A stretch of 64,000 bases of DNA from Zygnema cylindricum (Eukaryota > Streptophyta > Zygnematophyceae > Zygnematales > Zygnemataceae), in contig JBBHKE010003373.1 in NCBI GenBank assembly GCA_037447655.1, positions 229,174 to 293,173 on the forward strand. Direction: 5' to 3'. Within the stretch, counting starts at the first letter, position 1. Every line of letters starts with the position of its first letter. The position numbers and the translations under genes were made by a program. Below the pieces are notes generated by a model. The model worked only from the letters and a program-made list of their open reading frames with translations, searched no databases and had not been told where the DNA came from. This document shows positions 2,138 to 60,539 of this stretch, piece by piece.

Positions 2138-2138
2138 T

Positions 2139-7532: not shown

Positions 7533-7537
7533 TAGAC

Positions 7538-26078: not shown

Positions 26079-26083
26079 AGGTT

Positions 26084-27073: not shown

Positions 27074-28257
27074 CACCGGTACATGAGACGGAATTTGAGG
27101 ACGAGGACGATGAGCTCCTTTTGGATGAGGAGTTGGAGGCGAAAAACGAGGTTGAAATACCACGAAGGCAGAAATGTGCTTACGGTGGATTGAAAGGTGA
27201 AGCGGGCTGGATTGTAGATTCAGGTGCCTCCATGCACATGTGCAAGGATAGGCACCTGTTCACTAAGATAAGAAATATTCCCACCGTAGAGATAGAGTAC
27301 GGGGATGGGAGGATAGTCACCACTACTCTTGTAGGATCGATAGATTTGAAAGTGTTAGTAGAAGGAAAGACATCCATAGTAATATTCTCCGATGTATTGT
27401 TTATTCCGCTGCTAAACAAAAACCTCATCTCTACATCCGTATTAGATGATAAGGGTTTTTTTAGTAGCACTAGGAAAGGAGTCTTTACTGCTAGTTTTGA
27501 GGAGGATGTCTATTTCATTGCTGAGAAAAGTAGCCATGGGATGTTTAGGCTGGTTTTAAGTAATGAAAAGAAGAAACTTTATTATGCTAGTGTTCATGAT
27601 ATTATGATGTGGCATAAGAGGCTTGGGCATGTGAATCTAGACAAGTTAAGATAGATGAAAAAGATGGGAGTGGTGGAAGGGATTAAGTTTAGTGAGAATG
27701 ATAATATAAGTGATTGTAATGGATATGCTCAAGGTAAAACACACAGATTACCCTTTCCTAAAACAGCCACCTATAAGGGAGAAAAAATTCTAGATTTAGT
27801 ACACACAGATATTTGGGGACTAGCTAAAGTGCCCTCAGCCGGAGGGAAGAGATTTATGATGACTATCGCTGATGATAGGTCTCGGTATTTCCCAGTGTAT
27901 TATTTGAAAAACAACTCTGAAGCTAATAATTGTTTTAGACAATATAAAGCATGGAGCGAAAAACTTCATGAAACTCCAATCAAGAGAATAAGGAGTGACA
28001 ATGGTGGAGAGTATTCTTCTAACCAGTTTGAGGATTTTTTGAGGGAAGATGGGGTTCAACACCAAAAGATAGTTCCAGAAAACCCGGAACAGAATGGGGT
28101 AGATGAAAGGTTAAATAGAACACTACTTGATAGTGCTAGAAGTATGTTGTCAGATAAGAAGATAGGAAAAAGGTTTTGGGCAGAAGCAATGAACTGTGCT
28201 AATTACCTCAAAAATAGAGTTCTTACTTCAGCTATAAAAAAATCAAACACCTTATGA
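27070..28257 (+). pseudogene. pol: Copia 2 protease and integrase
   Basis: One frame broken by a TAG at 27652. The protease active site is WIVDSGASMHMC (27210 region). GAG-pre-integrase is MMWHKRLGHVN. The integrase core shows HTDIWG (first Asp), RSDNGGEY (second Asp) and PEQNGVDERLNRTL (Glu), so all three catalytic acids are present. The frame is lost at 28257 and continues one base later (YERWTCRKPDISHLK). Confidence 0.88.
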
Positions 28258-30419: not shown

Positions 30420-30432
30420 AAAATAAGGGGAG

Positions 30433-31492
30433 TGTAGAAATGAATGGTCTTTTAAAGTATTTTCTAGGTCTGAATAGAAATAAGAAAGAAGCCGAGGCAG
30501 TCTACCTCTTACTTCTCTCTCCAACTCTCAAACTTGTCGCAGTCACTAACAAATTGGAGAGGGAGCTAGAGCCATGGCTACCTAGGCTATCCAGAGGTTT
30601 ACGGGAATATATATTTTAGTTAAGGATTTAATTTACTAAAAGGTATGTGCCGGCCACAGGATTTGATCCTGGTACCTACCGGCCGACAGTCAACCGGTAG
30701 TCGGTAGCTTTAGCCGTTAAGTGTAGAATCACTGTTACGTACTATTAGGTTTGATAATTAATTTATCACTTCTACGTAGCATAGTTCATTTAATTGAAAT
30801 AGTTTTACGGGATACATAGATCCAGTAGATGTAAAAGTACGGATTCCGGTACGAGTACGAAACCAATACCGCGCATTTATTCCTTTAGTGAAACGAATAC
30901 CGCGCATGCATTTATTACGGCTACGATTAAATGTGAATTTGATCGGACGGCCGGAATTAACGCCGAGATCGCGGAAGAGGATTTTCGGCGGTTTGTGGTC
31001 ATCGCCACATCGGATGACACGTGGCGGAATGACATTGGATCGCGGCATCTCCGAAGATTAAGGGAGCGAATTCGGACATACCATGTGTCGATATTTAGGC
31101 CATGTCGTACAATGTTCGTACAGAAAGTACACCGGCAGCTGTACTTTTGTGTACGAAACTGAAATCTGATTGGCTCCGTACATCAGTAGATAGAGTCTGT
31201 GAGAGAGATAGGACTTAGAAAAATTAGAAGATAGGACCCTCTCTCCAAGAGAGCTTCTGTACAAAAGGTAAACTTTGACCCTCAATAACTTACTGCTCAG
31301 GGGAGCAAATTCATAAGATTCTTTTTGCTATCGACTTAGGGGAGTCTTGTCTTCACAGGGGTGAAGTTGGTCATAGTTTTTGTCTTCCAGGGTGGCAGTT
31401 ATTTTTGCTAAAACACAAAGGGGTCAGGGTTATTCATATAGGCTTCTTTGAAGCTGTCCACTCTGAGGACTTATGGAGGTCTCAGAGTTCTA
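30433..31492 (+). repeat. 3' LTR of copia 2
   Basis: Preceded by the purine tract aaaataaggggag. It ends gagttcta followed by the target duplication gtaac. Nearly identical to the 5' LTR, including a 96-codon antisense ORF that is a by-product. Confidence 0.9.
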
Positions 31493-37706: not shown

Positions 37707-38183
37707 TCCCTGTTTCCTATCGGATCTTTTTCATTTTAGAGTTTCGGAAATGAATTTGACATTTTATCAAATTTGCAACTAAATTTGAATATAACAATTC
37801 ATCCAATCATAGAGCGTTGCACCAAGATAAGTTAGTGGAGACTACAGTGCCCACCTTTGATTAGAGTTAGTAACCCTAATTCAAGTGGGGGATTGTTGAC
37901 CCAAAGAACAGAACCGAGCTTTTTATGGGTTTTCAAAGGTTTTTCATGGTCAAACTACCGTCAAATGAACGTTTTTCTTTCGACTGTTGTGACCAGGTTT
38001 TGGTCGTGATCGCGACAAGGCTTATGGCGAAATTGAAAGTTTACCACCATTTTGCCCAAGTAAAGTCCAACAAACAACGTTCAGCCATGTATGTAAGGAA
38101 GTCATAATCATCTAAAACACTTGAAATCACTTTTTTTAAAACTCCACATATATATGCATAAATAACTCTATATTTATTCATAC

Positions 38184-38186
<3 letters not shown>
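37707..38186. other. Intergenic, no gene seen
   Basis: Only short ORFs without recognisable features. Confidence 0.4.
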
Positions 38187-38214
<28 letters not shown>

Positions 38215-38236
38215 CATACATACATACATACATACA

Positions 38237-38270
<34 letters not shown>

Positions 38271-38328
38271 CATACATACATACATACATACATACATACA
38301 TACATACATACATACATACATACATACA

Positions 38329-38360
<32 letters not shown>

Positions 38361-38402
38361 CATACATACATACATACATACATACATACATACATACATA
38401 CA

Positions 38403-38430
<28 letters not shown>
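38187..38430. repeat. (CATA)n microsatellite
   Basis: About 60 nearly uninterrupted tetranucleotide units, passing into tatata. It runs almost up to the LTR end at 38461. The long Tyr/Met/Cys/Val ORFs on the minus strand are artefacts of the repeat. Confidence 0.97.
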
Positions 38431-38436
<6 letters not shown>

Positions 38437-38460
38437 CATACATATACATATATATATATA

Positions 38461-39499
38461 TGCAACTCTGAGACCTCCATAGGACCTCAGATTAGGCAGA
38501 TCACACAAAACCTCCCTCTAGGATAACCCAGACCCCTTTGTGTTTCAACCAGAATAACTGCCACCCTAGCAGACAAAAACTCTAACTACCTTTATTCGTG
38601 TAAAGGTAAGACTCCCTTGGGTCTATAGCAAAAAGAATCTCTGAATTTGCTCCCCTGAGCAGTAAGTTATGAAGGGTCAAAGTTGACCTTTTGTACAGAA
38701 ACTCTCTAGGAGAGAGGGTCCAATCTATCAAATTTTTCTAAGTCCTATCTCTCTTTAAAACTCTATCTACTGAATTACGACACCAATTATAATAGTGTAT
38801 CGCAAATAAAGGTACAAGTGTCGTTGTACTTTATGTACGACCATTGTACGACATGGCCAAAAAATCGACACATGTTATTTTTGGATTCGTTCCTGGAATC
38901 CTCGGAGATGCCGTAATCCAATGGGATTGTGCCACTTGGCGATTGATGTAACGTCGACCGCAAACCGCCAAAAACCTATTGCGCAATCTCGGCATGCTTC
39001 GTGGCCGTCCGATTAAGCCGGATTACAATCGTGGCCATCATAAATACTTGCACAATATGTGTTTCGCCTTCGAAACAAAATGCGCGATATCCATTTGGGA
39101 TGTTCCGTACGCCGTACATTACAAATTGTATCTATGTCTAAATATCACGTTGAATGAAGATAGCCGACGTGTTAATATTTAAATCATTATCAAACCCTAA
39201 ATCATTTATCTCTGGTTTAGAATAGTTGGCTAAGGCTACAGGCTACCGGCTACTTTGGCGGACGGCAGGTTTCAGGTTCAAATCTTGGGCCCGCCAAGTT
39301 TATTTTGGTAAAATCAGCTAACCTAATATCTGTCCCCGTCGGGATAGCTTAGGCGGCCATGGCTCTATCTCCCTCTCCAACTTTCAGTGACTACGACAAG
39401 TGTGGGAGCTGGAGGGAGGAGTTAGAGGCAGACTCTATCTTTTTCTTTTCTGTATTTTATAAAGCCTATAAAATACTAAAATAACCTTTAATTTCTACA
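38461..39499 (-). repeat. Copia 3 left (3') LTR
   Basis: Reads on the minus strand from TGTAGAAATTAAAGG to tctcagagttgca. Contains the stem-loop with stem GGCGGGC/GTCCGCC (39257-39295). Confidence 0.85.
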
Positions 39500-39512
39500 C
39501 TCCCCTTATTTT

Positions 39513-40496
39513 CTAGTCACTCTTTATTTTAACACCACACTTCTCCCGGTAGAAAATTAGTTTAGGGGAAGGAACAGGTTTGGTCATCATATCTGCTACC
39601 ATTTCACTATCTGGTTTATACTCCAAACTGATTATCTTGTTTTCTACTTTCTCCCTCACAAAGCTAAGTCTAATGTCCATTTGTTTGTCTTTAAAGCGAT
39701 GTTTAGGATTGGCAGAAATGGCAATGGCAGCCTGATTATCACAAAACACTTTTTGGACACCACTATTAAGATGACCAAGCTCACCAAGCAAAGACTTGAC
39801 CCACATTAATTCTTTTACAGCAGAGCAAAAAGCCATGTACTCAGCCTCCATGGTGGACTGAGCAATGACCTTTTGTTGCTTGTTGCTCCAGCAGCAAGCC
39901 CCATCACCCACATATAATACATATTCAGATGTGCATCTCCTCATAGGAGCATCCCCATAGCTGGCATCACTCCAAGTGGTGATGTCAGAATTGTTCCCAC
40001 CCAAATGCAACTATAGATCCCTAGTCCCAATGAGATATCTAAAGACTCTTTTAGCTGCCTCCCAATCTTTCTTAGTGGGAGCATTCAGACTCCTACTTAC
40101 TAATCCTACAGCTGCGGCTATGTCCGGACGGGTATAATTCATGAAATATATTAGGCTGCCCACTACTTGTCTATAAGGGATGGTCTGCATAAATCTTTTT
40201 TCTTTCGGGCCTACCTCATCGTCTAAGATTATAACTCTTTCTTTCTCACTCCCCTCACTTCCCTTCTTTAATTCCATAGGAGTGGTACAACTATTAGCCT
40301 TGTCCATTTGGAATTTTTCTAACATGATTCCCATGGCCTCTTTTTGAGTTAATCTTATTATCTTCCTATCTCTGTCTCTCTCTACATGAATTCCCAAAAC
40401 ATACCTTGCTTCTGCTATATCTTTCATCTCAAATCTTCCTTTTAAATCATTTTTCAACTTATTTATTTTATCCATAGATTTACTTAAAACAAACAA
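39513..40496 (-). pseudogene. pol: Copia 3 RT end and RNase H
   Basis: Starts just past the RT catalytic box (DLFVLSKSMDK). It continues with FMQTIPYRQVVGSLIYFMN and RNase H (TTWSDASYGD, AQSTMEAEYMA, CDNQAAIAI). One TAG at 40011-40013. Close in sequence to copia 2. Confidence 0.88.
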
Positions 40497-42116
40497 ATCC
40501 TCCTAGATCGTTAGAGGCTCCTCTGTAGCTGCAGAAAAAGCAAAATGAGAGCTTGCTTGCAGACGAGTGCTAGATCTCTTTCCCCCCGAAAATTCTGAGA
40601 CTAAGATCGTTGGCAATCTGTGATTTTTCTTTTTAGTTTGAACCGTAACTTGATCTTCTATAGTGTCTGTAGTAGTTCCTTCCACCTGAGGCGTAGCTTG
40701 TGGTGGAGCATCCTGTAAAGGCACCAAAGGAACTGAAGAAAGAGGTATCCCACTTGCCGGTGGAAAATAGACTCGCTACGTATGATGAAATATGACATAT
40801 TCTTGCTTTTCCTTTGCCGGTTGATCTGGCACTTTAAAATGGTCCACCGAATCTTGTTCATCTTTAATGTGGATATTCATAGAAATAATCACCTTTTGTT
40901 TCTCAAATACAGTAACTTTATATCCTTTTGCATTATCATCATACCCCATAAAAATTCGTGGTAGGCCCTTAGCCTCCATTTTCCATCTCTCCTGTGAAGT
41001 ATCTAGAATAAAACACTTGCTGCCAAAGATTTTAAAGTGGCTAACATCAGATTTTTCTCCTGTCCAAAGCTCATAAGGTGTGGTGCTAACAGATCTAGAA
41101 GCAATTTTGTTCTTAATGTAAACAGCATAGTTCAGTGCTTAAGCCCAGAATTTCAAATCTAGCCCTTTTTCTGCAAGCATGGACCGAGCACTCTCTGTCA
41201 CTGTCTTATTTAATCTTTCAGAAACACCATTCTGTTCTGGTGTATAAGGAAGAGTAAGATTGTGACTAATACCTTCTTGAATGAGGAATTATTCGAATTC
41301 CTTTGATGTGTATTCTCCCCCATTGTGCGATCTCAACGCCAAGATTGGAACTCCATCAAGCTTTTCTGCCCACGCTTTGTAATGTTTGAAGTGAGTGAAC
41401 ACTTCACTCTTATGTTGCATGAAGTAGAATTTAGTGTACCTCGAGTAGTCATCTGTGAATGTAACCATATAGTGGACGCCTCCAGCTGAAGCCACTTGTG
41501 AGGGACCGAGAACATCAGAGTGTATTAGTTGTAGAACTTTCTCCGATCTGTTGTCCGTTTCCTGTGGAAGTGGCAATTTGTGAATCTTGCCAAGTGAGCA
41601 ACCATCACATGATTTTATAGGATGAGAACTGAGAGAAACTCCCTCGACTTTTCCCAAATTCACCATTTTCTTAAGACTATCATAGTTCATATGTCCTAAT
41701 CTTTTATGCCACAACTCATTTTCAGATTGTACACTGGAGTAGAGAACATCATTTTCTTTATATTCCGCCATGTCCATCCGGTACATTTTGCTAGCATCTC
41801 TAGTCCCTGTTACTGCTACTTTCCCTTTCTTGCTAACAACCTGTCTTCCTCCTTTCAAAACAACCTCAAAGCCTTTGCTCTCCACTAATGATATAGAAAA
41901 TAGATTTTTCTTAAAGTCTGGTACATACAAAACATTGTGAAGGGTTCTCTCTACCGACTTCCCCCCCACATCTACCATCAAAGATACATCACCCTGAGTT
42001 GAGGTTTGAACACTCATGCCACAAGCATAGTAGATACTCCTTGGAGATGTTTACAGCAGATTTGTAAAAGTCGCTTTGTTCCAGCACATGTGGGTAGACG
42101 CTTCCGTGTCCATCAT
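40497..42116 (-). pseudogene. pol: Copia 3 protease and integrase, RT N-terminus deleted
   Basis: Protease active site reads MDTEASTHMC, so the glycine of D-T/S-G is Glu, and the preceding Trp codon is TAG. Pre-integrase LWHKRLGHMN is present. The integrase second Asp is replaced by His (LRSHNGGEY), and PEQNGVSERLNKT retains the Glu. The integrase tail and linker run to about 40500 and then jump to the middle of RT at 40496, so roughly 230 residues of RT, including the YVDD box, are absent. Confidence 0.85.
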
Positions 42117-48711: not shown

Positions 48712-50260
48712 TGTCATGCCGTATCTCGTCGGCTATTTTAGTTGTTTATACTTGGGTGTTAGGACAGGCAACCGCTACACTAATTTGTATTTGGGTATTA
48801 TTTGGGTTTCGCAGGACTGTACGACGTGTACCGTACGACCTACATTTTCCGTGATTTTCGGGATGGCGATTTGGATCGTACCCGCGGTCCTACCATACGA
48901 TGTATATTTTCCGCGATTTCCGCCGACGGCGTATTTGATTATTTCGCGTCGTTCGTACGACTTACGTTCACCGGAATTCCCGCGGCCACAAATTAGACCG
49001 TACTTGCGGTCCTGCCGTACCTTATTTATTTCTCCAAGATTTCTCACCGACAACTGCCGTACTTATTTATGTTTTTCCGGATTTCTCGCCGACGACACCT
49101 TTTCGAATTGCATCGAGACAAACAAACTTACCGTACTATATATATTTTGCGCGATTCTCGCCGACGGTAGCTTTGATCATTTCACGTCGACCGTACGACT
49201 CATATTTTCCAGAATTCGCGCGACGACAAAGTGGACCGTATCTGCGGTCCTGCCGTACAAGCTTTCATTTCCTTGAATCCCGGCCGACATCAAATTTTAA
49301 TCATTTCGCGTGGAGTAGCATCTCGACCGTCGACACAAAGTATGCGATTTTTGTAATATCACATCTGGACCGTCGACGCAAGTGACAGACAAATCGACTG
49401 TCAGTTCTGACGAAGCGACGTCATTGGACTATTTTAAGTCGTGAACCATTTGGAGGTTCACGCATTCACATGTAGATAGGAAGGGTTTTAATCCGTAGGT
49501 TATAGATTCTGTAACGTAAGGCATACGATTTCGGCTTCCTATTGGCTGAATCCAAACTAGACGCAAATATTGACATAGCACGCTGTACTCTGATTGGCTT
49601 GTTTTCGCTAGGCGTTGTTTTTTTTTACTTAATTCATTTCTTATCATTTCCTGCACATAATTTTCAAGTGCAGGTATTATTCATTTGATTTATTTTCAGT
49701 ATTGAGGATTCTCTGAAGCCATCTTTTTATTTGTAAAATTGTCCGGACAGTTTAGAGGCGATTTTCTGCCTTTGCGTGAAGCGTCTAGTTTTCTATTACA
49801 TTATCAATATCTTGTAAAGCCTTACAAATTAATCTATACTGTTGAAATAAGTAGTTTTGAGTATATTTTCTAGGTCTAAATTTATTAGAAAACAGGAAAA
49901 GAAAATGAAGGCAGCCTGCCTCTATCTCTTCTCTCTCTCTCGCCCCCATACTTGTTGTAGTCACTGAAGGAGAGAGAGAGAGAGCAATGGAGCCATGGCT
50001 GCCTCAACTCCATAGGAAGGACTAAAGAGTGGCTTTATTTCTATTTGGCTTTTGCGCATCTTTTGAGTTTGGTTATCTCAAACCTCATAAGTGTCGGGCA
50101 TATTGTCATTTTCAGTTTTTATTTATCTTTCTCGGTTGTTTATGCTTTGATTTATTCTATTTAAGTATAAATTCAGATTATCCTTGATAAGATAACTCCT
50201 GCAATGAATATAAATAGACCGTGGGGCCTAGTGGTCATCCATCAGCTTAGTATTCCTGCA
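48712..50260 (+). repeat. 5' LTR of the methyltransferase gypsy
   Basis: Aligns with 58420-59915 (for example gtcatgccg, cttgggtgttaggac, gactgtcagtt, gaagcgacgt, ttatctcaaacctcataagt, gaccgtggggcctagtggtc). About 190 bp at 49843-50028 is a copia LTR start (tattttctaggtct ... gccatggctgcct) replacing LTR sequence. Right end approximate. Confidence 0.8.
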
Positions 50261-51167
50261 CTTGAAAATTGTCTTATTTTCTTTTCTCGCTTGTTTGTTT
50301 TTTTTTCAATTTCGGTTTTCTTTTTATTCAAAGAAAAAAAAAACAAAAATATCAAAAATATATATTATAGATACATTTCTACAAATATCTATAACTAGCT
50401 TTACATTTATAATTACCATTTGCTTGTTAGTTGACGTCTTATCTTATTGGCCAATTTTCGGCCAACGATATACTACACTAACTTAAGTATTTGGTTTTTG
50501 TTTTCCCCATTTTCTTTGTTATATGTCTTGAGCATCGTTTGCTCACATTGAGACATACTTCACTAAGGAGTGGAGTTAGTGGAGCGGATCCGTTCTTGGG
50601 AGCTCTGCAAAACTTTGGTTGTAGCGAACAAACACAGTTCACCCTTGGCAATCACCAGATTTCTAAGAGTGTTATGTAAGTATCACGATGCCTTGCGGGT
50701 ACAGGCGCGTGTTAAGGTAGTCGGTTGATCGCCTAGAGGGATCGTGTTTGGAGTGGATTAGTGTTAATCCACTTGTATTGAGCACTGCATTTGTCCAGCT
50801 TTCCTTGCTTGCTATCTGGCCCTGAGTGGCCTTGGCTGAGTTTGCTTTGCCCGGAGTGGGATTTCTTTCATAGATCTTACCGTTGGAGGCATTGGTTAGC
50901 ACTTTAAGGGATTGTGCCGCTTTAGATCTGCACTTGGGAGTGCTTGGATAGTAAGTTATTTGCCAATATAGATCTGCCCCTTCGGCCTTGTCCCCTTGTT
51001 TGCAGGGTAAAAGGTTTTGGTAATACGGCTTTCTGATAGATCTGGCCATCGAGGCCCTGCTAAAGATTGATTGGCTGATTAGACAAAAGAGTGGTGTGGC
51101 GTGGCATTTGAAGCATATCGGATAGATCGGTTTTGTTATCTGGTCATCATTTGGTGTTATCATTTTT
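50261..51167 (+). other. Leader of the methyltransferase gypsy
   Basis: About 0.9 kb between LTR and gag, no ORF of note. I could not identify a convincing tRNA primer-binding site. Confidence 0.5.
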
Positions 51168-51860
51168 ATGCCCACCGATTGGGATAATCTTGATTATCCT
51201 GTCGGAACCACTCGATCGTCGGCCTCGTTTAGGCCCACGGAATCCGGACCATCAGATTTATCTAGTCTTTTGGACCATCCTTCCCTAAATATCTCGGGTC
51301 AAATTTCCCCTTCGGTTCGATCCACTCTCACCTCAGTATCTTCTTTATCATCAGTCTCTTCCACATTTTTCGAAGAGGAATCTGACCACGATTCCCTTGA
51401 CGGGTCGGATTCCGATTCATTATCTTTTTGGTTTCCGCAAATTACCAATCCAGTTTTAACCCCAAGCATTCCATTATTGGAAATGGCTTCCACATCGGAG
51501 GGAGGGGGGCGCCTTCATTTCTGTTTTTCAGGAATGAAGGACACCATGACTTTATCGCATTTTCGAATGCTATTCGATACCGAAATGCGTAATCTTGCAT
51601 TTCGGTACCAAGATCGGTTTGATCTACGGGTCGCTTTCTCTCTTTTAGGCCGTTACCTTCCAGGTTCAGCCCTTACTCTTTATTCTCGAAAGTATGATTC
51701 CGTACTTGCGATGACAAAGTTTTCTCCGTCTTACGCTGGGAGTCCTGCTATTATAGGACAACCAGAAATTCCATACCAACCGGCTATCCCGGAAGTCCTC
51801 GATCTCAACGGCGATGTAATTACAGCAGCGTTGCGGAAATACCGCAACAGTTTGCTATAG
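51168..51860 (+). CDS. gag: Gag, N-terminal part
   Basis: ATG 51168, 230 codons. Ser/Asp-rich N-terminus. A downstream fold with MTLSHFRMLFDTEMRN. The frame ends TAG at 51858, while the continuing gag (VAEIPQQFAIAARAGIP) lies in the -1 frame. The change is near 51800-51855. Whether this is programmed or a mutation is open. Confidence 0.75.
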   Translation: MPTDWDNLDYPVGTTRSSASFRPTESGPSDLSSLLDHPSLNISGQISPSVRSTLTSVSSLSSVSSTFFEEESDHDSLDGSDSDSLSFWFPQITNPVLTPSIPLLEMASTSEGGGRLHFCFSGMKDTMTLSHFRMLFDTEMRNLAFRYQDRFDLRVAFSLLGRYLPGSALTLYSRKYDSVLAMTKFSPSYAGSPAIIGQPEIPYQPAIPEVLDLNGDVITAALRKYRNSLL

Positions 51861-53827
51861 CAGCACGTGCTGGAATTCCAGCACGACCAGCAATGACGAT
51901 CCCTATACTGGATCCGCTCTCTGTCATTTTTGAAATGTTGCAAGCGGAATACCGTATGCAAAACCGTGACCAAGTTTGTGAGTTAATGAACTTCGAACGG
52001 AAGTCAGGAAATACTGCCCCTGCCATGCGTGCTCGCATGGAAGCTCTTCGTGAAGCATTGCCGGACTTAATGTCGGATGCTGAAGCTGTCCAAAAAAATT
52101 TAGGACAGTTTCCGAGTCAGTCTAAGAAATTCATCCAGAGTCACCTGACTCAAACGTATGGCTTGAAGTTTACTTTCGACCAAGCCGCCCAGCATGCCGT
52201 GGAATACGAAATGCAAAATTGTTGGTGGGAAGCCCATGACCGACCTAAAGCGGTCCCGAAAGAACCGGTTGTTCCACCATGGAACAATCCTCGTCCTAAC
52301 AACCGGCCTCCTAAAGTCCCAGCCATGGGAATTCTACCTGTTGCTCCCGGAAACCGATTATGTTTTCGATGTGGGAAGACCGGGCATGATGCCCGAATGT
52401 GTCCAGACAAAAGTGCTACCTGTACACATTGCAAGCAAACCGGACATTATGTCCATCGTTGTCATATAAAAAACCCGGAATATTCCTACCAAAACCAAAT
52501 TAAGAGTGGTGGCATTCCAGCTCGATCCGCAAGACCGGTTCAACCGGTTAAAGAACCGGAAAAAGACACCACTCCACCTAAGGTATCTCGAAGAGAGAGA
52601 GAGCGTTTAGAAATGCAAGAGCAAATGGCGGCTATGATGAAAGAACAATTTGCAGCTTTCATGACCCAAATGAAGCCACAATTTACAGGCATGGCTCGCA
52701 CTGTTGTACACATGCCCACGTTGGCAGGTCGAATCTTACGAGATTCCACCATCCAACAACGAGAGGCTACGTTCGACAAAGGTTCGACCGATCACAGTCG
52801 TGACGGTAAAACACCTAACACGCGTATTCCTTTGTCATTCACTAAAGAACCTTCTCCTCTCTTGCCCGAAACCGCTTCAGCCATCGCGGCTGAAGCTCTC
52901 AACATAGTGGATCGAACTATACATGAGGCACACCGCGTGAAAGAACGCTTGTGCATTCTATCCGCTATGATTTCCGACTCACCGAAAATCTCCCCTATCT
53001 CCTTACCCTCCCATAGCTCAGCTGCAGCTGCCGCGTTACAAGCACTTCAGCTGCACAGAAATCTTGCTGCTATTCAGCCTATTTCCATAGAGGAGCGAAA
53101 GTCTCTCGATCCTCACATCAGTTTTTTGGATAATGCGAAGGGTGCATTGTTGATCAATGGTATAGCCCCTTCCCTGCTTCTCATGGATACGGGTGCAAAG
53201 CCGGTGATATTGGGCTCTAGCTTTGCACTGAAGCTTGGTCTAACTCCGGACAAGCTTCATTCCACTTCTACTCGCTTGTTAACATCAGCGGGTACAACCA
53301 AACCTGTCCTAGGAATCATTAAGGAACCGCTTGTTTTCAGGTTCCAGAACGAAACGGCCACAGACTTTGTCGAAATCTCGGTTCACGCTCTAGTCACTAA
53401 ATGTAGTGACTATGAATGCCTAGTGGGACAGGACGTTATATTTTGTGTAGGGGGTGGTGTTGATATGCATGATCAGACATTTTCTTATAGGCCCACTAGC
53501 TTCCCGGAACGTAAAATCTTTATTCCGCTAATTTGCGCTAGGAAGCCCATGCCTATTATGGCAAATTCGGCCACCTCTATATTTGCATTTTCAGGGAATT
53601 CGGTGGGGGCCGAAATATTTCATTCATTGTCAGCAGAAGAAATTTTGCCCGATTGGTCTTACCTACCAGAAATTTTCAGTGACCCAGGTTTTCTTATAGA
53701 TACCAGGGAATTTGACCGGATCTATAACCAAACCTTGTCAATTGCACTTTCTCGGTCTCTTCTCCAATCCCATTCCCTACAGACTCTTCTGGGTTTCTTC
53801 CCATTGATTGGAATCCGGTCCAATTGA
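51861..53827 (+). CDS. Gag C-terminal part, nucleocapsid and aspartic protease
   Basis: ORF to TGA 53825; first ATG at 51893, but the reading extends upstream in the gag context. Residues counted from ATG 51893: capsid-like helices 1-130, two zinc knuckles CFRCGKTGHDARMC (157-170) and CTHCKQTGHYVHRC (177-190), a basic/charged helix (SRRERERLEMQEQMAAMM), then the protease with catalytic Asp in LLLMDTGAKPVILG (about 429-442). The element needs the protease to mature its particle. Confidence 0.88.
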
Positions 53828-54966
53828 AACCTCATCCAAATGGATTAGTGATTTTGGACCTTTTCGCTGGAATAGGCACTTCTCTCCTTGCATGTTTGCG
53901 GAACGGATTATTAATCCGATTTTATTATTCGGTGGAGATTGATCCGTTAGCACGGAAAGCACAATTACATCATTGTAATCTGTTGCATTCCCAATACCCG
54001 CATTTGTTCCCAAAATCTGCATACGAGCATATGCATACTGCCCTCCCACAAGACATCCGGATTGTGGGCAACCATCACTTACTGGAGATTGGTCCAATCG
54101 ATCTAGTTTTTGGCGGATGGGAGTGCCAGGGAATGTCCCGGGCCGGGAAAGGTCTCGGATTAGCCGATCCCCGCACCAAATTATTTTTTGAGTTGGTTCG
54201 CATCTTGCATTTTCTACAAACTTTAGATTCTCCTATGGGGTATATCTTGGAAAATGTCGCGGCCTATAATGATCCAAGACCTACGGTTTTGGCTGATTAT
54301 CAACGAATCGAACAATTAATTGGTCCGCCTCTTATTATTGACGCGGCTCGCCATGGTTCACTAGCACACCGGGTTCGCTCCAAATGGACGAACCTGATCG
54401 ATATTGGTAGACTTCGGGAGGCCAACTTGTTAGTTCGTCCTCCTCCTACAGACATTCAGGCTGCCCTTCTTCCTTTTCATAAGGTGCAGCCTTGCATTCA
54501 AAAGGACTGTCCCCCTAATTTCAGTGTCAATGTCCCGGGTCAACCTCTCAAGGTGCTTCCTACCTTAGTTTCTTACCCACATTCACATGCATTCTCTAAT
54601 GACGGCCCTGGCATGCTCCGAAATATTCATACTGGTGAGCTTGAAGAGCCTACCTCTACGGAACGAGAACAGTTACTGCATTTCATTCCCGACACTACTG
54701 CCGCTCCTGGTCTTACTGAACGTCAAAGATGCACTTTATTAGGTCGTGTCATGGACCCTCAGTCTTTGTCTTTTGTTTTAGGTCTTGGGTTTGCAGCTGG
54801 TCGCCACTCTCAGCCACATTCGTCTCAACCAGCTGAGGGGGGGGGATGCATCACTAAGAAAATATTTCCGTACCACTCTCCAAGGGACCATATTTCAATT
54901 TTTCCTCTTTCCTTCCCCAATTCCACCAGTCCCGGAAATCTCTATCTACGATTTCCTCAATCCTAG
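53824..54966 (+). CDS. C5-cytosine DNA methyltransferase domain of the gypsy polyprotein
   Basis: Transfers a methyl group from S-adenosylmethionine to carbon 5 of cytosine. Numbering from the TTG at 53824: motif I DLFAGIGT (12-19), motif II acid E38 in YYSVEID, motif IV GGWECQG with catalytic Cys101, motif VI ENV (143-145), motif VIII-like HRVR (182-185), and a C-terminal motif IX/X-like LLGRVMDPQSLSFVLGLGF. The order is canonical, so it is not a permuted DRM. KGLGLADPRTKLFFELVRIL is DNMT3-like. The residue before the catalytic Cys is Glu, where most enzymes have Pro. The true start lies upstream: the frame runs from about 53780 without an ATG, so it was made as part of Gag-Pol. Past the 9-G run at 54837-54845 the frame is not meaningful. 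Confidence 0.92.
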   Translation: MKPHPNGLVILDLFAGIGTSLLACLRNGLLIRFYYSVEIDPLARKAQLHHCNLLHSQYPHLFPKSAYEHMHTALPQDIRIVGNHHLLEIGPIDLVFGGWECQGMSRAGKGLGLADPRTKLFFELVRILHFLQTLDSPMGYILENVAAYNDPRPTVLADYQRIEQLIGPPLIIDAARHGSLAHRVRSKWTNLIDIGRLREANLLVRPPPTDIQAALLPFHKVQPCIQKDCPPNFSVNVPGQPLKVLPTLVSYPHSHAFSNDGPGMLRNIHTGELEEPTSTEREQLLHFIPDTTAAPGLTERQRCTLLGRVMDPQSLSFVLGLGFAAGRHSQPHSSQPAEGGGCITKKIFPYHSPRDHISIFPLSFPNSTSPGNLYLRFPQS

Positions 54967-55648
54967 CCATATATCTTGGTCTATTCCCGTATACACGGCT
55001 GTCCAATCTACAAGTCCTATGCATATTCCACCCACTCCTCATTGGAGTGCTGCTTTTCCAACACGCAGTTGGAATCATTCGGTTAATTGCCTTAAACAGA
55101 CACCTGTAACTTACGAGTTAGGTCAAACGCTTATCGCAGATGAGCAGTTGGCCTTTGCACAAGCCATGGAAGCTATGACAACCGAAAATCGCGACGCTCC
55201 TAAATGGAAATTTGTCACCAATTTAACAAAGGCCGAACAAGAGTTACTGAATGACGTAGATTTACGAAATATCGATGCCTTTGCCTTTTCTATGAATGAT
55301 TTGGGTCGTCACACCGCTTATAAAATGTCGATAGATCTCGAAGATGATCGCCCTATATTTAAACCGAAACATCGTTTGTTAGAAACTGAATGGGAAATGG
55401 TAGATAAGCGATGTGCTGAACTAGAGGAAGCTGGCCTAATCTATCGATCAGACTCCACATTTGCAGCTCCCACTGTCATGCCTCGAAAAAAGGATTTCGA
55501 GGGTAATTTTACTGAACGTCGAATGTGTGGTGACCATCGTGAACTAAATGCTAGAACAGTTCAAGATCGTCATCCCATGCCTCTTGCCGCAGAAATATTT
55601 GATCATGTAGGCGGAGCAAATTATTTTAGTATCATTGACCTCCGTTAA
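54846..55648 (+). CDS. pol: Linker and reverse transcriptase N-terminal part
   Basis: The frame is +1 relative to the methyltransferase and continues if one G is removed from the 9-G run. DASLRKYFR follows, then RT fingers (YKMSIDLEDDRPIFKPKHRL, VDKRCAELEEAGLIYRSDS, RRMCGDHRELNARTVQDRHP) and FSIIDLR, ended by TAA at 55646 in the middle of the palm. Confidence 0.85.
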
Positions 55649-57337
55649 GGGTTCAATCAAATCGAGATAGAGGAAAAAGACCGGCATAAAACTGCCTTTT
55701 GGGGTAGCGACGGCCGATGGGAATGGGCCGTAATGCCATTCGGACTGAAAAATGCTCCGGCAGTATTTCAAAAAGTCATGGACTCCGTTCTTGGAGGCTG
55801 TAAGTTTGCTAGATGTTACATCGATGACCTTATCATTGCCTCGGCTACTATCGAAGAGCACGCTGCTCACATCGAATGGGTATTGACTGAATTGAAAAAG
55901 GTCGGATTAAAATGTCATCCAGCGAAATGCACCTTTGGAGCCGAGGGAGTGCCTTACCTCGGCCATTTTATCTCGGCTGAGGGGATCACTCCTCTCGAAG
56001 CAAAGGTAGAGGCAATCAGTAAGTTGCCTGCTCCCACGGACCTCACCAGTCTGCGAGCCTTTCTCGGACTTGCTAATTATTATCGCAGGTTTGTATATAA
56101 TTTTAGCACCATCGCATCTCCGTTAAACGACCTTCTCAAGAAGGAAGTGGCGTTTATATGGGGTCCCGATCAGATTTCCGCATTTCAAAAATTAAAAACC
56201 GCCTTATCGAGTGCTCCAATTCTCCGTCCCCCTAATCACAAACTTCCTTTTTGTCTCCAAACAGATTTTGGAAAACCCGGAATCGCTGCCATCTTGACAC
56301 AAAGAGAGTTGAGCGGAGAGGAATACGTAGTAGCTTACGCGAGTAGAAGCAATAACCGGGCTGAATCAAATTATAGTAGCTACGAAGGAGAGTGTCTAGC
56401 CGCGGTTTGGGGAGTCGTTCACTTCCGCCATTATTTGTACGAAAAACATTTCACACTCTTAACTGACCATCAGCCCTTACATTGGCTGATGACGAACGAT
56501 AAGCTTTCCGGCAAGTTAGCCCGATGGGCTTTAATTTTACAAGAATACGACATTGAAATAATTCACCGACCAGGTCTGCTTAGTCTAAACGCAGACGGAA
56601 TTTCCCAAAATCCTTTGCCTCGAACAACAGATAACGGATTTCGACAAGATTTCGATGACGACGATGTTCCCGTCATGTCAATGGGTTCTTATCTTACTTA
56701 TTGCCTGGCGTCTATTCTGAACCCCCGTCCCGCCACAGATCCTTGGCGTGATGGGCCTCTCATTCATTTCCTATCCTCCCAGACCTTCAAGTCTGGCACC
56801 ACCTCCGATGAAGAATACCGAGTGAAAAAGAGGGCCAAAAGTTACCTTTGGCTCGGGGGATCTTTAGTTCGGTTGTTGGCAGACGGAAGCCATAGGCACG
56901 TTCCACGGCCTACCGAGCGTCTTTCTTTCATTGAGCAGATTCACACCGAGCTTGGTCACTACGGTACCAAGCGAACGTTAAGTCTAGTCCAGGCACGGTA
57001 TTGGTTGTCAGGAATGCAGGCTGATGTCACTGCTATTCTGCACAAGTGTGCCACCTGTGAGTGTCTCCGAACTTCTTTCTCTAACCGACAGACTACGCTT
57101 CAACCTCTACCTATTAGGGGTTTGTTCTATCGATGGTCGGTCGATTTGGCTGGACCTTTTCCTATCTCACGTAGGGGTAAACAATATATTATGATTATGA
57201 TTGAAAATTTCAGTATGTGGGTAGAAGTCGTAGCCCTGCCTCACAAGACCGCAAAGTTAACCGCCGCAGCTTTTAAGGAATATGTCCTTATGAGATACGG
57301 TGCCCGAGCCGAGGTCCTTACGGATCAAGGTACATAA
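55649..57337 (+). pseudogene. pol: RT palm/thumb, RNase H and integrase N-terminal part
   Basis: Same frame as the preceding ORF. GFNQIEIEE, AVMPFGLKNAPAVFQ, the catalytic YIDD near 55817, LGHFISAEGI and FLGLANYYRRFV mark RT. DFGKPGIAAILTQ, YASRSNN and SSYEGECLAAVW and TDHQPLHWL mark RNase H. The integrase zinc finger HTELGHYGTKRTL...CATCECL and core VDLAGPF (first Asp) and LTDQGT (second Asp) follow. A TAA at 57335 breaks it. Confidence 0.92.
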
Positions 57338-58213
57338 TTTCGGGGAGAATTTCAAGAGATGCTTGATGAGGCTCTCATCGATCATCGTCGTACTAGTCGG
57401 GATCACCCCCAGGCCGATGGTCTGGCTGAACGAGCAGTCCAGACATTTAAGCGTGCCTTGCGTAAGCATTGCTTAGAAAAACACATTTCGGTTAGGGACG
57501 AGTCCCTCGGTTACATTACCATGGGATATCGCATGTCGGTTCAGGCTAGTCTGGCTAATTTCAGCCCGTATTATGTTTTATTTGGGCGACAACCGTTGCT
57601 CGGTCGCAATATTCAGAAGGCCGCAAGCTTCACACTTCCGCTGATGTCTGACACTATCTTTCTCGAAGAACTCACTCATCGTGCTTTGGTTTTTGCCCGT
57701 GAAATGCCCACGGCTTTTGATAACCTGCATATTGCTCAGCATCGGGACACACTTCGGTTTGCCACCACTCGAAGCGGAAGTTACAGGTCGCAACAGAAGC
57801 CCTATCGGGTGGGAGAGTATGTTTATCTTCGCAGGCAATCTTTCGACACTTTGGACACTGATGTTTCTACACACATCCTACGGATCATCGAGGTGGATCC
57901 GAACGGAATGTTGGGATTACAAGGAGCGGACACACGGACTTTTCGAGAGTTCTCCAAGAATTGTGCTCCATGTTACTTACCATATTTATCGCAGGATATG
58001 GAACCTATGCGGATGCCGATTACGGAGGCGACGACATGTACCTTTTGTCATCGATCGGACGTGGAAACTACCATGTTACTTTGTGATCATTGCAATCAGG
58101 GGTTTCACATGGAGTGTTTGGTGCCACCACTATTGGCGGTTCCAGATGGTCACTGGTTTTACCACGGATGTCGCGAGCTTCCGGTCGTGTTGGCCAGCTC
58201 GTCTGTCGGCTAA
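57338..58213 (+). CDS. pol: Integrase C-terminal part with PHD-finger-like end
   Basis: Begins FRGEFQEML after the stop. HPQADGLAERAVQTF carries the catalytic Glu. FSPYYVLFGRQPLL and PYRVGEYVYLRR (SH3-like GPY/F-type region) follow. The C-terminal zinc module runs from CTFC (58037) to WFYHGC (58171): C-x2-C, MLLCDHCNQGFHMEC, VPPLLAVPDGHWF. Seven of eight PHD ligands are clear. The seventh position is Tyr (TAC) where Cys (TGC) is expected. Ends SSSVG-stop, so the module is the protein C-terminus. Confidence 0.85.
   Translation, partial: FRGEFQEMLDEALIDHRRTSRDHPQADGLAERAVQTFKRALRKHCLEKHISVRDESLGYITMGYRMSVQASLANFSPYYVLFGRQPLLGRNIQKAASFTLPLMSDTIFLEELTHRALVFAREMPTAFDNLHIAQHRDTLRFATTRSGSYRSQQKPYRVGEYVYLRRQSFDTLDTDVSTHILRIIEVDPNGMLGLQGADTRTFREFSKNCAPCYLPYLSQDMEPMRMPITEATTCTFCHRSDVETTMLLCDHCNQGFHMECLVPPLLAVPDGHWFYHGCRELPVVLASSSVG
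58037..58171 (+). other. PHD-finger-like module of the integrase
   Basis: See the integrase entry. It occupies the position where other gypsy groups have a chromodomain. By analogy it would read histone H3 tails and guide integration; this is inference. Confidence 0.75.
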
Positions 58214-58419
58214 AGAGATGGGGGAGGGAATAAACAGACCTAACCATAACCAGCTAAGTCGTTGATATTTCTTTTTCTTCCACCATGCTTGCCGTTCTAT
58301 TTATTCATTTTTCTCTTTCATGTCATATTTTATTCACAATATATTTTCATCATTTTTAAGTGGAGCACAGCTGATGATATCGCATGCATCTTCACGTTCT
58401 TTGACACATGCACGACAAC

Positions 58420-59915
58420 TGTCATGCCGCATCTCCTCGGCGATTCTAATAGTTTATATTTAGGTGTTAGGACGGGCAGCCGCCACACTAATTTATATTT
58501 GGGTGTGTTTTGGGTTTCGCAGGACCGTACATACCCACATTTCGCATTCGTTTCAACCGTACAAATTTTACATCGTCGTACGCGTCGACCGTACATATTC
58601 ATATTTGGCTGTAATATGCGCCGACGACAAGTTGACCGTAGAACTCAGAATTCCCAGGTTTTCTGCCGATGACGACTTGTACCGCACGACTTATATTTTT
58701 TGGGATTTCTGACGATAGTGAATCGGGTCAATTCACGTCGACCGTAATTATTTATTTCTCCATGATTTTCCGCCGACAACTCATGTTAAAATTCACCTCG
58801 ATACAAACAAACTTACCGTACTATATATATTTTTCGCGATTCTCGCCGACGGTAACTTCGATCATTTAACGTCGACTGTACGACTTACATTTTCCGGAAT
58901 TCGCGCGACGACAAAGTCGACCGTACCTGCGGTCCTACCGTACAAGCTTTCATTCCCTTAAATCCCGATGGACAGCAACTTTTAATCATTTCGCGTGGAG
59001 TAGCATATCGGTCGTCGATACAAAGTATGCGATTTTCGTAATATCACATCTGGACCGTCGACGCAAGTGACAGACAATTCGGCTGTCAGTTTTGACGAAG
59101 CGACGTGATTGGATAATTTTAAGTCGTGAACCATGTGGAGGTTCACGCATTCACATGTAGATAGGAAGGTTTTTAATTTGTAGGTTATAGATTCTGTAAC
59201 CTAGGGCATAGGATTTCGGCCTCATATTGGCTGAATCCCAACTAGACGTAAATACTTACATATTAAGCTATACCCTGATTGGCTTGTTTTCGCTAAGCGT
59301 AGTTTTTGTTATTTAGTTCATTTTAGATCATTTCCTGAACACAATTTTCAAGTGCGGATTTTTTTATTTTCAGTATTGAGGATTTTTCTGCAGCCATCTT
59401 TTTATTTGTAATATTGTCAAGACAGCTTAGAGGCGATTTTCTGCCTTTGCGTGAAACGTCTAGTTTTCTATTACATTATCAATATCTTGTAAAGCCTTAA
59501 ATATTAATCTATACGGCTTTGGCCAAGACACACATGGTTGCCTTTCACTTCTCTCGTCCGTTTAATTGGATTTTGACCGCGTTCTCACGACACAAACTTC
59601 TTTCCCCGGCTGTGGCTAAACTTTAATTAGTGTGGAAGTTGCATGTTGGGATTATTGATTTGTTGTTTTTATTTCTTGTGATTGAGTATTTATTTCTATT
59701 TGGATTTTGCGCATCTTTTGAGTTTGGTTATCTCAAACCTCATAAGTGTCGGACATATTGTCATTTTCAGTTTTTATTTATCTTTCTCGGTTGTTTATGC
59801 TTTGATTTATTATATTTAAGTATAAATTCAGATTATCCTTGATAAGATAACTCCTGCAAGGAATATAAATAGACCGTGGGGCCTAGTGGTCATCCATCGG
59901 CTTAGTTCTCCCACC
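58420..59915 (+). repeat. 3' LTR of the methyltransferase gypsy
   Basis: Starts TGTCATGCCG; right end approximate. Lacks the copia LTR insertion found in the 5' LTR and instead keeps tgtggctaaactttaattag sequence. Confidence 0.8.
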
Positions 59916-59924
59916 CTTGAAAAT

Positions 59925-60065
59925 CCCACCTTGCCTGTTGTTGTATTTACCCATTTTTACTTTTATGATTTATTTCATTTCCGATATCTCGCCATCATTT
60001 GAGTTTAAGTTGAGCACAGCTGATGATATTGCATGCATCTTCATGTTATTTGACACATGCACGAA
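59925..60065 (+). repeat. Second copy of the element's 3' untranslated tail
   Basis: gagcacagctgatgatat, gcatgcatcttca and tttgacacatgcacga repeat 58364-58416, which lies directly before the 3' LTR. Here no LTR follows. Confidence 0.7.
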
Positions 60066-60539
60066 AAATATGAGGTTGCATTCTTTTGCATCTCTTAATA
60101 AATGCCTTAGTGCTGAACGGGAGTGAAAGGAAGGTGCGATTAGGGAGGAATTGGTTAATGATGGGAGAGAAGGCGCATAAGTCAAGAATTTTAGTAGGTT
60201 CGTTTTCCCTCAACTTCCTTGCATTAGACCTTTGTCCGAGTGTTTGGGGCCACAACGTAACATATATAGTCAAGCTGATAGAAGGTTTGTTTAGGTGTCA
60301 TTTTTTGAAGTATCATAGTTAAGAGTCTATAAGATTAATATTGGGAAGTCTTAGAAGCCAACACGGTTGTTTTAGGTGTTGTTTAATGGGGTGGTCCCAC
60401 CACTTGCTAGTGGGGACAATAGGTTAGTCGTTGGCGTCAACTCAAGATGTTAGGGATTGAAGAGACAAGAGCATGATGCATCTCAATATAAATGGTAAAG
60501 TAAAGCAGTGACACTTAGATGCACGAATGGTGGAACATG
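60066..60539. other. Intergenic, nothing certain
   Basis: No gene seen; may include the body of a short element transcribed from the tRNA-like region at its right. Confidence 0.35.

What the first reader, a model, noticed from the sequence alone, without database searches (positions are those of the whole stretch)
53824..54845. Cytosine-5 DNA methyltransferase encoded inside a Ty3/gypsy polyprotein
Seen: motifs I, II, IV, VI and VIII in canonical order between an aspartic protease (about 53183) and RT (from 54846), in the same orientation and within one pair of LTRs. Known: such capture has been reported for retrotransposons of dinoflagellates and charophytes (from memory, to be checked). Inference: the element could methylate its own DNA after reverse transcription, or alter host methylation.
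Basis: partly seen in the sequence, partly recalled or inferred. Interest (0 to 1): 0.95.

Follow-up and report, generated by a model that had tools for sequence, protein, structure and literature searches.

The report
Gypsy retrotransposon carrying a DNA methyltransferase
A family of jumping genes in a plant-lineage genome carries its own DNA-methylating enzyme between its protease and reverse transcriptase; similar elements were reported in 2018, and this family adds an altered active site, a chromatin-reading finger and unusual end repeats.

Summary
Window 53824-54966 encodes a DNMT3-type cytosine-5 methyltransferase (PF00145 E=2.2e-12; family profile's best PDB match DNMT3A, 1e-20) between the protease and RT-RNaseH-integrase of a Ty3/gypsy element.

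It is no local insertion. In the same genome all 123 scored candidates (of 782) match PF00145. Of the 20 best-ranked, which I fetched, 19 are copies of this family, in two clades with about 40% identical methyltransferases; 15 of 19 have RT downstream on the same strand. Codon comparisons show purifying selection.

Additions:
(i) Repeats read A-coding-B-A-B, as in DIRS elements, but the integrase is DDE-type. Ends are TGTC...GACA, with a 4-bp target duplication in 2 of 7 copies tested.
(ii) The window's clade has ECQ instead of PCQ at the active site (5 of 5); the other clade has PCQ (15 of 15).
(iii) In that other clade an in-phase UAG precedes the methyltransferase-pol frame (13 of 15).
(iv) Pol ends in a PHD finger.

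The window copy is old and broken. The kind is known: KnitGypsy-Dnmt3 of Klebsormidium nitens (de Mendoza 2018). Verdict: new variant of a known kind. Self-methylation is plausible but undemonstrated; no clear CpG-decay footprint.

The parts
48712..50269 (+). A1 repeat (5' terminal repeat), starts TGTCATGCC
   Evidence: Aligns with A2 at 90.9% over 1076 nt in the blocks kept, K2P 0.097
51168..51860 (+). gag-like N-terminal ORF, other frame than the next (gag by position only)
   Evidence: no Pfam match
51893..53827 (+). gag zinc knuckle (about 52358-52405) and aspartic protease (53153-53434)
   Evidence: PF00098 E=1.4e-4, PF13650 E=3.7e-6; DTG motif
53824..54966 (+). DNMT3-type cytosine-5 methyltransferase; domain about 53842-54801; motif IV reads ECQ
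54785..55648 (+). linker and N-terminal RT, ends at an in-frame stop
   Evidence: no Pfam match alone; 70% aa identity to L099 and 75% to L109 over the matched stretches
55733..57337 (+). RT (YIDD), RNase H, integrase zinc finger and part of the DDE core; ends at an in-frame stop
   Evidence: PF00078, PF17917, PF17921 over cut-off; PF00665 E=1.8e-6, below its cut-off in this broken piece
57359..58213 (+). integrase C-terminal part and PHD finger (58037-58159; one metal ligand changed in this copy)
   Evidence: PF00628 E=5.4e-9; sequence
58212..58230 (+). purine-rich run before B1 (polypurine-tract-like, by eye)
   Evidence: sequence; a similar run precedes B1 in the C1407 and C1870 copies
58231..58417 (+). 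B1 repeat (start inferred from the purine run; aligned part 58280-58417), ends CACGACA
   Evidence: 79% to B2
58420..59923 (+). A2 repeat, separated from B1 by two bases
59924..60066 (+). B2 repeat, 3' end of the element

Best explanation
This is an old, inactivated copy of a large Ty3/gypsy family in a genome of the plant lineage (streptophyte, inferred), whose Pol reads PR-C5 methyltransferase-RT-RNaseH-integrase-PHD. Shown here by sequence: a methyltransferase present in both of two clades whose RT-IN is about 50% identical, under purifying selection; a PHD finger closing pol in the copies scanned; split direct repeats A-coding-B-A-B; TGTC/GACA ends; and 4-bp target duplications in two copies. 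Inferred mechanism: the methyltransferase is made as part of Pol. In one clade this would occur only when ribosomes read through a UAG, so it would be dosed like RT and integrase and packaged with them. It would methylate cytosines de novo, DNMT3-fashion, on the newly made double-stranded cDNA before or at integration, so that the new copy looks like already methylated host DNA (tolerated, not recognised as foreign). The PHD finger would tether the integration complex to a histone mark. The repeat layout is what results if cDNA with long repeats of the form B+A is end-joined into a circle and the DDE integrase then cuts at the internal B|A junction, where both element termini meet.
For: Methyltransferase homology and fold; AlphaFold model, mean pLDDT 68.2, the 50 best Foldseek matches listed are DNMT3A/3B/3C/3L entries, best E=2e-13, TM 0.58 by query. 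Family: 123 of 123 scored candidates match, out of 782 first-look candidates. RT/IN lies downstream in 15 of 19 fetched copies; the clade-1 protease probe hits upstream in L098, L099, L109 and L110; an aspartic protease match, just under Pfam's cut-off, lies in the upstream frame of the two clade-2 copies scanned, L100 and L113. One frame from zinc knuckle to PHD in L109. Selection: window versus three clade-1 copies, dN about 0.15 with dS saturated; clade-2 pairs 0.11-0.44, L112/L097 0.13; RT-IN 0.07-0.34 (the pairs left out of these ranges are in the full report). In-phase UAG just before the methyltransferase-pol frame in 13 of 15 clade-2 copies. Split repeats in 8 copies. TSD TTGG and ACGT in two complete copies. 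B1|A2 junction GACA-(GC or AC)-TGTC, AACA in C507. No tyrosine recombinase family among the Pfam matches of the polyproteins scanned.
Against: I have no methylation data for this genome. In 10 repeat pairs, C-to-T differences are 35 of 698 CG sites (5.0%), 46 of 738 CHG (6.2%) and 117 of 2742 CHH (4.3%), so there is no strong CpG decay of the kind heavy lasting methylation often leaves. CpG o/e is 1.05 in the window element, 0.79-0.92 in the clade-1 stretches and 0.56-0.79 in the clade-2 stretches, without a matching rise of TG. The K. nitens homologue was inactive in yeast, inconclusively. Clade 1 lacks the motif IV proline. Phage enzymes score as well as or better than DNMT3A in pairwise searches, so a host DNMT3 origin is not proved. 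TSDs are absent in 5 of 7 bounded copies, two of which end A-coding-B with no A2-B2. The window copy itself is broken.
Confidence: 0.6

Rival explanations
1. The methyltransferase acts against the host rather than on the element's own cDNA: it methylates host chromatin or a competitor's DNA, or serves as defence against DNA viruses (a speculation in print, PMC6338049).
For: Copy number is high and a PHD reader is fused to the same Pol. A defence role is proposed in PMC6338049 (passages).
Against: It sits inside Pol and, in one clade, behind a UAG, so it would be made in small amounts and inside particles (inference); selection is of the same order as on RT. No direct data.
Confidence: 0.15
2. 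The domain is no longer a methyltransferase, above all in the ECQ clade: it is kept as a nucleic-acid- or SAM-binding or structural part of Pol, perhaps as an RNA m5C enzyme or a chaperone for RT.
For: Glu replaces a Pro that 57 of 57 aligned viral relatives have (57 of the 80 loci were aligned), in 5 of 5 clade-1 copies, while the rest of the domain stays constrained. The K. nitens form was inactive in yeast.
Against: The catalytic Cys, the ENV Glu and Asn, two motif VIII Arg residues and the Phe and Gly of motif I are kept in the 13 sequences of alignment A2, and the other clade keeps PCQ in 15 of 15 copies.
Confidence: 0.2
3. The methyltransferase is a local insertion or chance neighbour, not part of the element.
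For: Frame breaks lie on both sides in the window copy.
Against: The same place and orientation recur in other copies; single frame in L109; purifying selection.
Confidence: 0.01
4. The A-coding-B-A-B layout is not a replication product but arose once by rearrangement and is simply copied, as a linear cDNA with A and B ends made by template switching; no circle is involved.
For: Inheritance of the layout alone would give the same sequences. Copies with A-coding-B only exist (C1374, C1920).
Against: A transcript that starts in A1 and ends in B2 cannot regenerate both ends by the standard LTR scheme (inference). B begins right after a purine run and A2|B2 looks like two cDNA ends joined.
Confidence: 0.35

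Closest known systems
KnitGypsy-Dnmt3, Klebsormidium nitens (de Mendoza et al. 2018, PMC5890265)
   Same: Gypsy Pol ORF with a Dnmt3-type domain; repeats arranged like a DIRS element; purifying selection on the DNMT (Results sections and Fig. 4 legend read)
   Different: The paper ranks K. nitens third for DNMT number in its survey and says it has fewer DNMT-retrotransposon copies than Symbiodinium; here 123 of 123 scored candidates match PF00145 (782 candidates in all). No PHD finger is mentioned in that main text. A UAG before the DNMT, an ECQ active site, TSDs and end sequences are not described for K. nitens in the sections I read; the figures and supplement were not available to me, so its domain order is unknown to me
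SymbioDIRS-Dnmt3 and SymbioLINE-Dnmt (Symbiodinium; same paper)
   Same: Cytosine methyltransferase inside a high-copy retrotransposon; SymbioDIRS also has A-coding-B-A-B repeats
   Different: They use a tyrosine recombinase or a LINE endonuclease; this family has a DDE integrase and no recombinase match
Chromoviruses (Ty3/gypsy with a chromodomain after integrase)
   Same: A histone-reader type of domain at the C-terminus of Pol
   Different: PHD finger, not chromodomain
DIRS/PAT-like retrotransposons
   Same: Split direct repeats
   Different: DDE integrase and, in two copies, 4-bp TSDs instead of a tyrosine recombinase and no TSD (no-TSD recalled)
Orchid Ty3/gypsy with an m6A demethylase domain (PMC9289625; search listing and passages only)
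   Same: A nucleic-acid-modifying enzyme captured by a gypsy element
   Different: Different enzyme and host; there it lies in an additional open reading frame

Membership tests
KnitGypsy-Dnmt3-like elements | Dnmt3-type domain in the Pol ORF of a Gypsy element | tested here: met
KnitGypsy-Dnmt3-like elements | A-coding-B-A-B repeats | tested here: met
   B-A-B seen in 8 copies: window, C1042, C1025, C2458, C1870, C1344, C1407, C507; A1 also seen in window, C1042, C1870, C1344, C507 and, cut, in C2458; A1 not found in C1407, 54 nt of it in C1025; A2-B2 missing in C1374 and C1920; no A or B found in the pieces fetched of C82 and C1233
KnitGypsy-Dnmt3-like elements | Purifying selection on the DNMT (paper: Ka/Ks < 0.2) | tested here: met
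   dN/dS 0.11-0.44 within clade 2 (0.74 for one nearly identical pair), 0.13 L112/L097; saturated dS in clade 1 apart from 0.32 for L109/L110, 99.8% alike. Not every pair is below 0.2
KnitGypsy-Dnmt3-like elements | Common descent with the K. nitens copies | not testable with these tools
   I had no K. nitens sequence; protein database switched off
Ty3/gypsy | PR-RT-RNaseH-integrase order with rve integrase | tested here: met
Ty3/gypsy | Two simple LTRs | tested here: not met
   Split repeats instead
Ty3/gypsy | Short target-site duplication | tested here: inconclusive
   4 bp in 2 of 7 bounded copies (C1344 TTGG, C507 ACGT); none in C1374, C1920, C1042, C1870, window
DIRS | Tyrosine recombinase | tested here: not met
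   No such Pfam match in the window's six frames or in the five frames of L109, L100 and L113 scanned
DNMT3 family | Best profile match to DNMT3 over other C5 classes with solved structures | tested here: met
   DNMT3A 1e-20, 3B 3e-18; HaeIII 2e-8, HhaI 3e-8, DRM2 2e-7, DNMT2 3e-7, DNMT1 0.005. But phage enzymes reach 73-93 bits in pairwise tblastn against 45 bits for DNMT3A by phmmer; no tree with eukaryotic DNMT3s was made
C5 methyltransferases | Motif IV Pro-Cys | tested here: not met
   ECQ in the window clade, 5 of 5; met in the sister clade, 15 of 15
C5 methyltransferases | Methyl transfer to cytosine in DNA | not testable with these tools
   needs a bench assay

The most novel reading that the evidence does not exclude
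A Ty3/gypsy lineage with an integration route I know from no described LTR element: its cDNA is first end-joined into a two-repeat circle, and a DDE integrase then cuts at an internal B|A junction that holds both termini, giving A-coding-B-A-B copies with 4-bp TSDs. Its own methyltransferase marks the circle before insertion and, in one clade, works with a Glu-Cys active site for which I recall no precedent among C5 enzymes.
Probability: 0.25. Interest if true: 0.8.

Novelty: new variant of a known kind. Interest (0 to 1): 0.62.

Why it matters
It shows that capture of a DNMT3-type enzyme by gypsy elements, which I found described from one charophyte, has been a lasting success in this genome, with many copies and at least two old clades. 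That makes the question why a transposon should carry the silencing mark of its host testable with natural variants: ECQ versus PCQ active sites, and with versus without a UAG before the enzyme. The mix of a DDE integrase with DIRS-type repeats also challenges the rule of thumb that split repeats belong to tyrosine-recombinase elements.

Tried and rejected
Local insertion of the methyltransferase: rejected. Plain LTR pair: rejected. Relatives in viral contigs and genome contigs by single-protein patterns, for the whole domain, its C-terminal part and RT-IN: none confirmed. An alignment-based viral scan gave 80 kept loci with relatives of the enzyme, 27-36% alike; I did not look at their surroundings, and the RT-IN scan of the same collection found no relative. 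An empty site for the C1870 copy could not be shown: its 5' flank lies in a gypsy RT and its 3' flank reads, by eye, like a copia element. A CpG-decay footprint was sought and not clearly found. No primer site beginning TGG was recognised by eye next to A1 in the copies printed. Rfam and tRNA scans of the window found nothing.

An exon at L101 is nearest to PDB 9mvy, 7ubu and 4fsx (1.3-1.4e-28) and much less near to the next group of chains (about 1e-12). The list labels all three 'DNA (cytosine-5)-methyltransferase 1'; that 4fsx is the maize chromomethylase ZMET2, and that chromomethylases are streptophyte enzymes, is recalled.

In the RT set the pair L102/L103 compares different stretches and L096/L102 (56 codons) is poorly aligned; both are disregarded. 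In one search a motif count came out empty and was replaced. In one search the motif column is empty through a pattern fault; only its ORF coordinates were used.
Full report
OBSERVATION. The 380-codon frame at 53824-54966 on the + strand is a cytosine-5 DNA methyltransferase: Pfam PF00145 at 2.2e-12, DNMT3A at 5e-11 by phmmer. Chance is excluded by these values and by the recurrence described below. The element around it reads: a gag-like frame 51168-51860 (no Pfam match); zinc knuckle and aspartic protease 51893-53827; methyltransferase; RT 54785-55648 and 55733-57337 with RNase H and integrase; integrase C-terminus and PHD finger 57359-58213. This copy is broken: the frame changes on both sides of the methyltransferase and between the two gag-region frames, and RT and IN each carry an in-frame stop. 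The methyltransferase frame itself is open and keeps its motifs, except that motif IV reads GGWECQG where PCQ is expected.

OTHER COPIES. The window's genome is held as G000 (352,776,454 bases, 2689 contigs). A PF00145 search there had 782 first-look candidates, of which 123 were scored; all 123 matched over the cut-off (the tool says such counts are lower bounds). The 123 include the window's own copy and at least one host gene. I fetched 7.7-8 kb around the 20 best-ranked; the sample is therefore biased to good matches, and the other 102, leaving the window's own aside, were not read. 19 of the 20 are copies of this family. One (L101) is a host exon nearest to the 4fsx group of PDB chains. 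In 15 of 19 an RT match lies downstream on the same strand. L095, L097, L111 and L112 do not show it; L112 has an integrase fragment downstream and another gypsy RT on the opposite strand. L109 holds one frame of 2120 aa (as far as fetched) with zinc knuckle (just under cut-off), methyltransferase, RVT_1, RNase H, integrase and PHD in that order. No copies without the domain were searched for.

TWO CLADES. Clade 1 (window, L098, L099, L109, L110) has methyltransferases 73-81% identical to the window's in tblastn. Clade 2 (15 copies) has methyltransferases about 40% identical and RT-IN about 45-50% identical to it. The two clades are closer to each other in RT (49-51% for the window, L109 and L100) than to the other gypsy RT in L112 (32-36%). 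That both carry the enzyme in the same place suggests one capture before the split (inference; no tree was built).

ACTIVE SITE. Motif IV is ECQ in 5 of 5 clade-1 copies (in L098 the preceding codon is a stop) and PCQ in 15 of 15 clade-2 copies. Of 57 viral relatives aligned (57 of the 80 loci kept), 57 have Pro at that place and 57 have the Cys. The catalytic Cys, the ENV Glu and two motif VIII Arg residues are invariant in the 13 sequences of alignment A2. I recall no C5 enzyme with Glu there; this was not searched in print.

KIND OF ENZYME. The profile of 13 copies ranks DNMT3A (1e-20) and DNMT3B (3e-18) well above HaeIII (2e-8), HhaI (3e-8), DRM2 (2e-7), DNMT2 (3e-7) and DNMT1 (0.005). The model (mean pLDDT 68.2; residues 219-275 below 50) has its 50 listed best Foldseek matches among DNMT3 entries. 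Against a settled host-DNMT3 origin: single phage enzymes reach 73-93 bits in tblastn, with roughly 25-35% identity, while DNMT3A reaches 45 bits by phmmer. These programs are not comparable score for score, and no tree with eukaryotic DNMT3s could be made.

SELECTION. By Nei-Gojobori, window against L109, L110 and L099 gives dN 0.147-0.148 with dS saturated. Clade-2 methyltransferase pairs with usable dS give 0.11-0.44, except 0.74 for the nearly identical pair L096/L095; L112/L097 gives 0.13; L109/L110 (99.8% alike) gives 0.32. Four pairs across clades give 0.18-0.37 at dS above 2, which I do not rely on. RT-IN gives 0.07-0.34, leaving out L113/L103 (0.55, 53 codons) and the two disregarded pairs L096/L102 (0.52) and L102/L103. 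The methyltransferase is thus kept, in the same order as the RT, though its values tend to be somewhat higher. The low-end values agree with the Ka/Ks < 0.2 reported for K. nitens.

UAG. In 13 of 15 clade-2 copies a TAG stands just before the methyltransferase-pol frame. In all 13 it is in phase with the methyltransferase match and preceded by 40 open codons, and in 12 of 13 no further stop lies between it and the match (L103 has two). It is followed by CAATT in 12 of the 13 (L103: TAATT); the pattern I used required (C/T)AATT. L104 and L111 gave no match to the pattern. UAG-CAA-UU resembles the leaky stop of tobacco mosaic virus (recalled). Read-through is inferred, not shown. L109 of clade 1 lacks this stop.

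PHD. Pol ends in a PHD finger in clade 1 (E=5.4e-9 in the window, 1.3e-9 in L109). In the two clade-2 copies scanned, L100 and L113, it matches below Pfam's cut-off (E=0.0044 and 0.0019), with the metal ligands visible by eye in these and in L102 and L108. In the window copy one ligand is changed.

REPEATS AND ENDS. Self-comparison finds B1/B2 in L096, L104, L107, L108, L109 and L110, 6 of the 19 copies as first fetched, and in C507 after a further fetch. Complete copies: C1870 (A1/A2 91.4%, B1/B2 97.5%), C1344 (A1/A2 identical over 931 nt), C507 (A1/A2 98.2%, B1/B2 93.2%). C1042 has all four repeats with A1/A2 at 83% over 807 columns. C2458 has a cut A1 next to an assembly gap. C1407 has no A1 in the stretch fetched, C1025 only 54 nt of it, and C82 and C1233 showed neither A nor B in the pieces fetched. 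C1374 and C1920 have A1, coding and B1 but no A2-B2, and end exactly at the B end. A starts TGTCA (TATCA in C1042's A1); B ends CGACA (CAACA in C1025's B2 and C507's B1, CGAAA in the window's B2). Target duplications: TTGG in C1344 and ACGT in C507; none in C1374, C1920, C1042, C1870 (discordant flanks) or the window; so 2 of 7. Between B1 and A2 stand two extra bases, GC or AC. A purine run precedes B1 in the window, C1407 and C1870. Ages by K2P of A1/A2: window 0.097, C1870 0.080, C1042 0.168, C2458 0.030.

HOW IT MOST LIKELY WORKS. If plus-strand synthesis starts after the purine run, reverse transcription would give repeats of the form B-GC-A. Joining the ends of such cDNA gives a circle with A|B at the join. 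Cutting it at one internal B|GC|A, where both termini meet and the two extra bases are lost, gives exactly A-coding-B-GC-A-B. The TSDs point to the DDE integrase encoded here. This is inference from anatomy; simple inheritance of the layout through linear cDNA is a live rival, and the two A-coding-B copies without TSD fit neither neatly. For the enzyme, the most economical reading is de novo methylation of the element's own DNA within the Pol complex, as de Mendoza et al. propose for their DIRS elements. The lack of a clear CpG-decay footprint (35/698 CG, 46/738 CHG, 117/2742 CHH) does not favour heavy lasting methylation of these copies, though weak mutability of methyl-C in this host would also explain it. 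CpG o/e is lower in the clade-2 stretches (0.56-0.79) than in the window element (1.05).

WHAT IS KNOWN. I read the abstract, the Results sections on Symbiodinium DNMTs, on K. nitens and on yeast activity, and the Discussion of PMC5890265, and passages by term. It describes KnitGypsy-Dnmt3 with a Dnmt3 domain in a Gypsy Pol and DIRS-like repeats. PHD does not occur in its main text. A 2025 paper (PMC12344493, passages) repeats that DNMT3s sit in retrotransposons of streptophytes and dinoflagellates. A 2019 opinion paper (PMC6338049, passages) cites cytosine methylases in Ty3/Gypsy and DIRS elements and says they are absent from tracheophytes. In the titles and abstract starts of the papers listed by my searches for split repeats with DDE or Gypsy, and for PHD with LTR or Gypsy elements, I saw no such element. 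The lists were capped at 15 of 26 papers and 10 of 27, the library holds open-licence papers only, and I opened five papers other than PMC5890265, by passages only (PMC2774666, PMC12344493, PMC6338049, PMC9289625, PMC3286476; the last names a PHD protein only as a neighbouring host gene). So the kind is known. The ECQ clade, the UAG, the PHD finger and the TSD and junction data are what I did not find in print.

LIMITS. Only 20 of 123 matches, besides the window, were read. A second genome search, which would have given ranked copies and perhaps host DNMT3s, did not complete.

Noticed in passing
window 25022-31489 and 1-2138, 38461-40499: Ty1/copia-type sequence (by eye) with repeats 92-98% alike and related pieces about 79% alike elsewhere in the window, some in the other orientation.
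   Followed up: no
window 9749-10447 and 12064-15699 (-): Likely host gene pieces; one carries a PHD finger (E=7.8e-8), the other has no Pfam match but looks BRCT-like at its end by eye. CpG o/e there is 0.54 against 1.05 in the element.
   Followed up: partly
window 7534-8081 and 38146-38460: Short-period tandem repeat arrays seen in the self-comparison.
   Followed up: no
L100 with L122-L123 (C1374) and L113 with L124-L125 (C1920): Two copies read A-coding-B and stop exactly at the B end, without A2-B2 and without TSD: recombined copies or another integration product.
   Followed up: partly
L106 and L114: Second methyltransferase-bearing units lie within the same 8 kb stretch, so copies cluster or nest.
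   Followed up: no
L101 2001-2249: Chromomethylase-like host exon (PDB 4fsx group, E=1.4e-28) with repetitive sequence nearby.
   Followed up: partly
window 2024-3022: Fragment of another gypsy-type integrase C-terminus, judged by eye.
   Followed up: no
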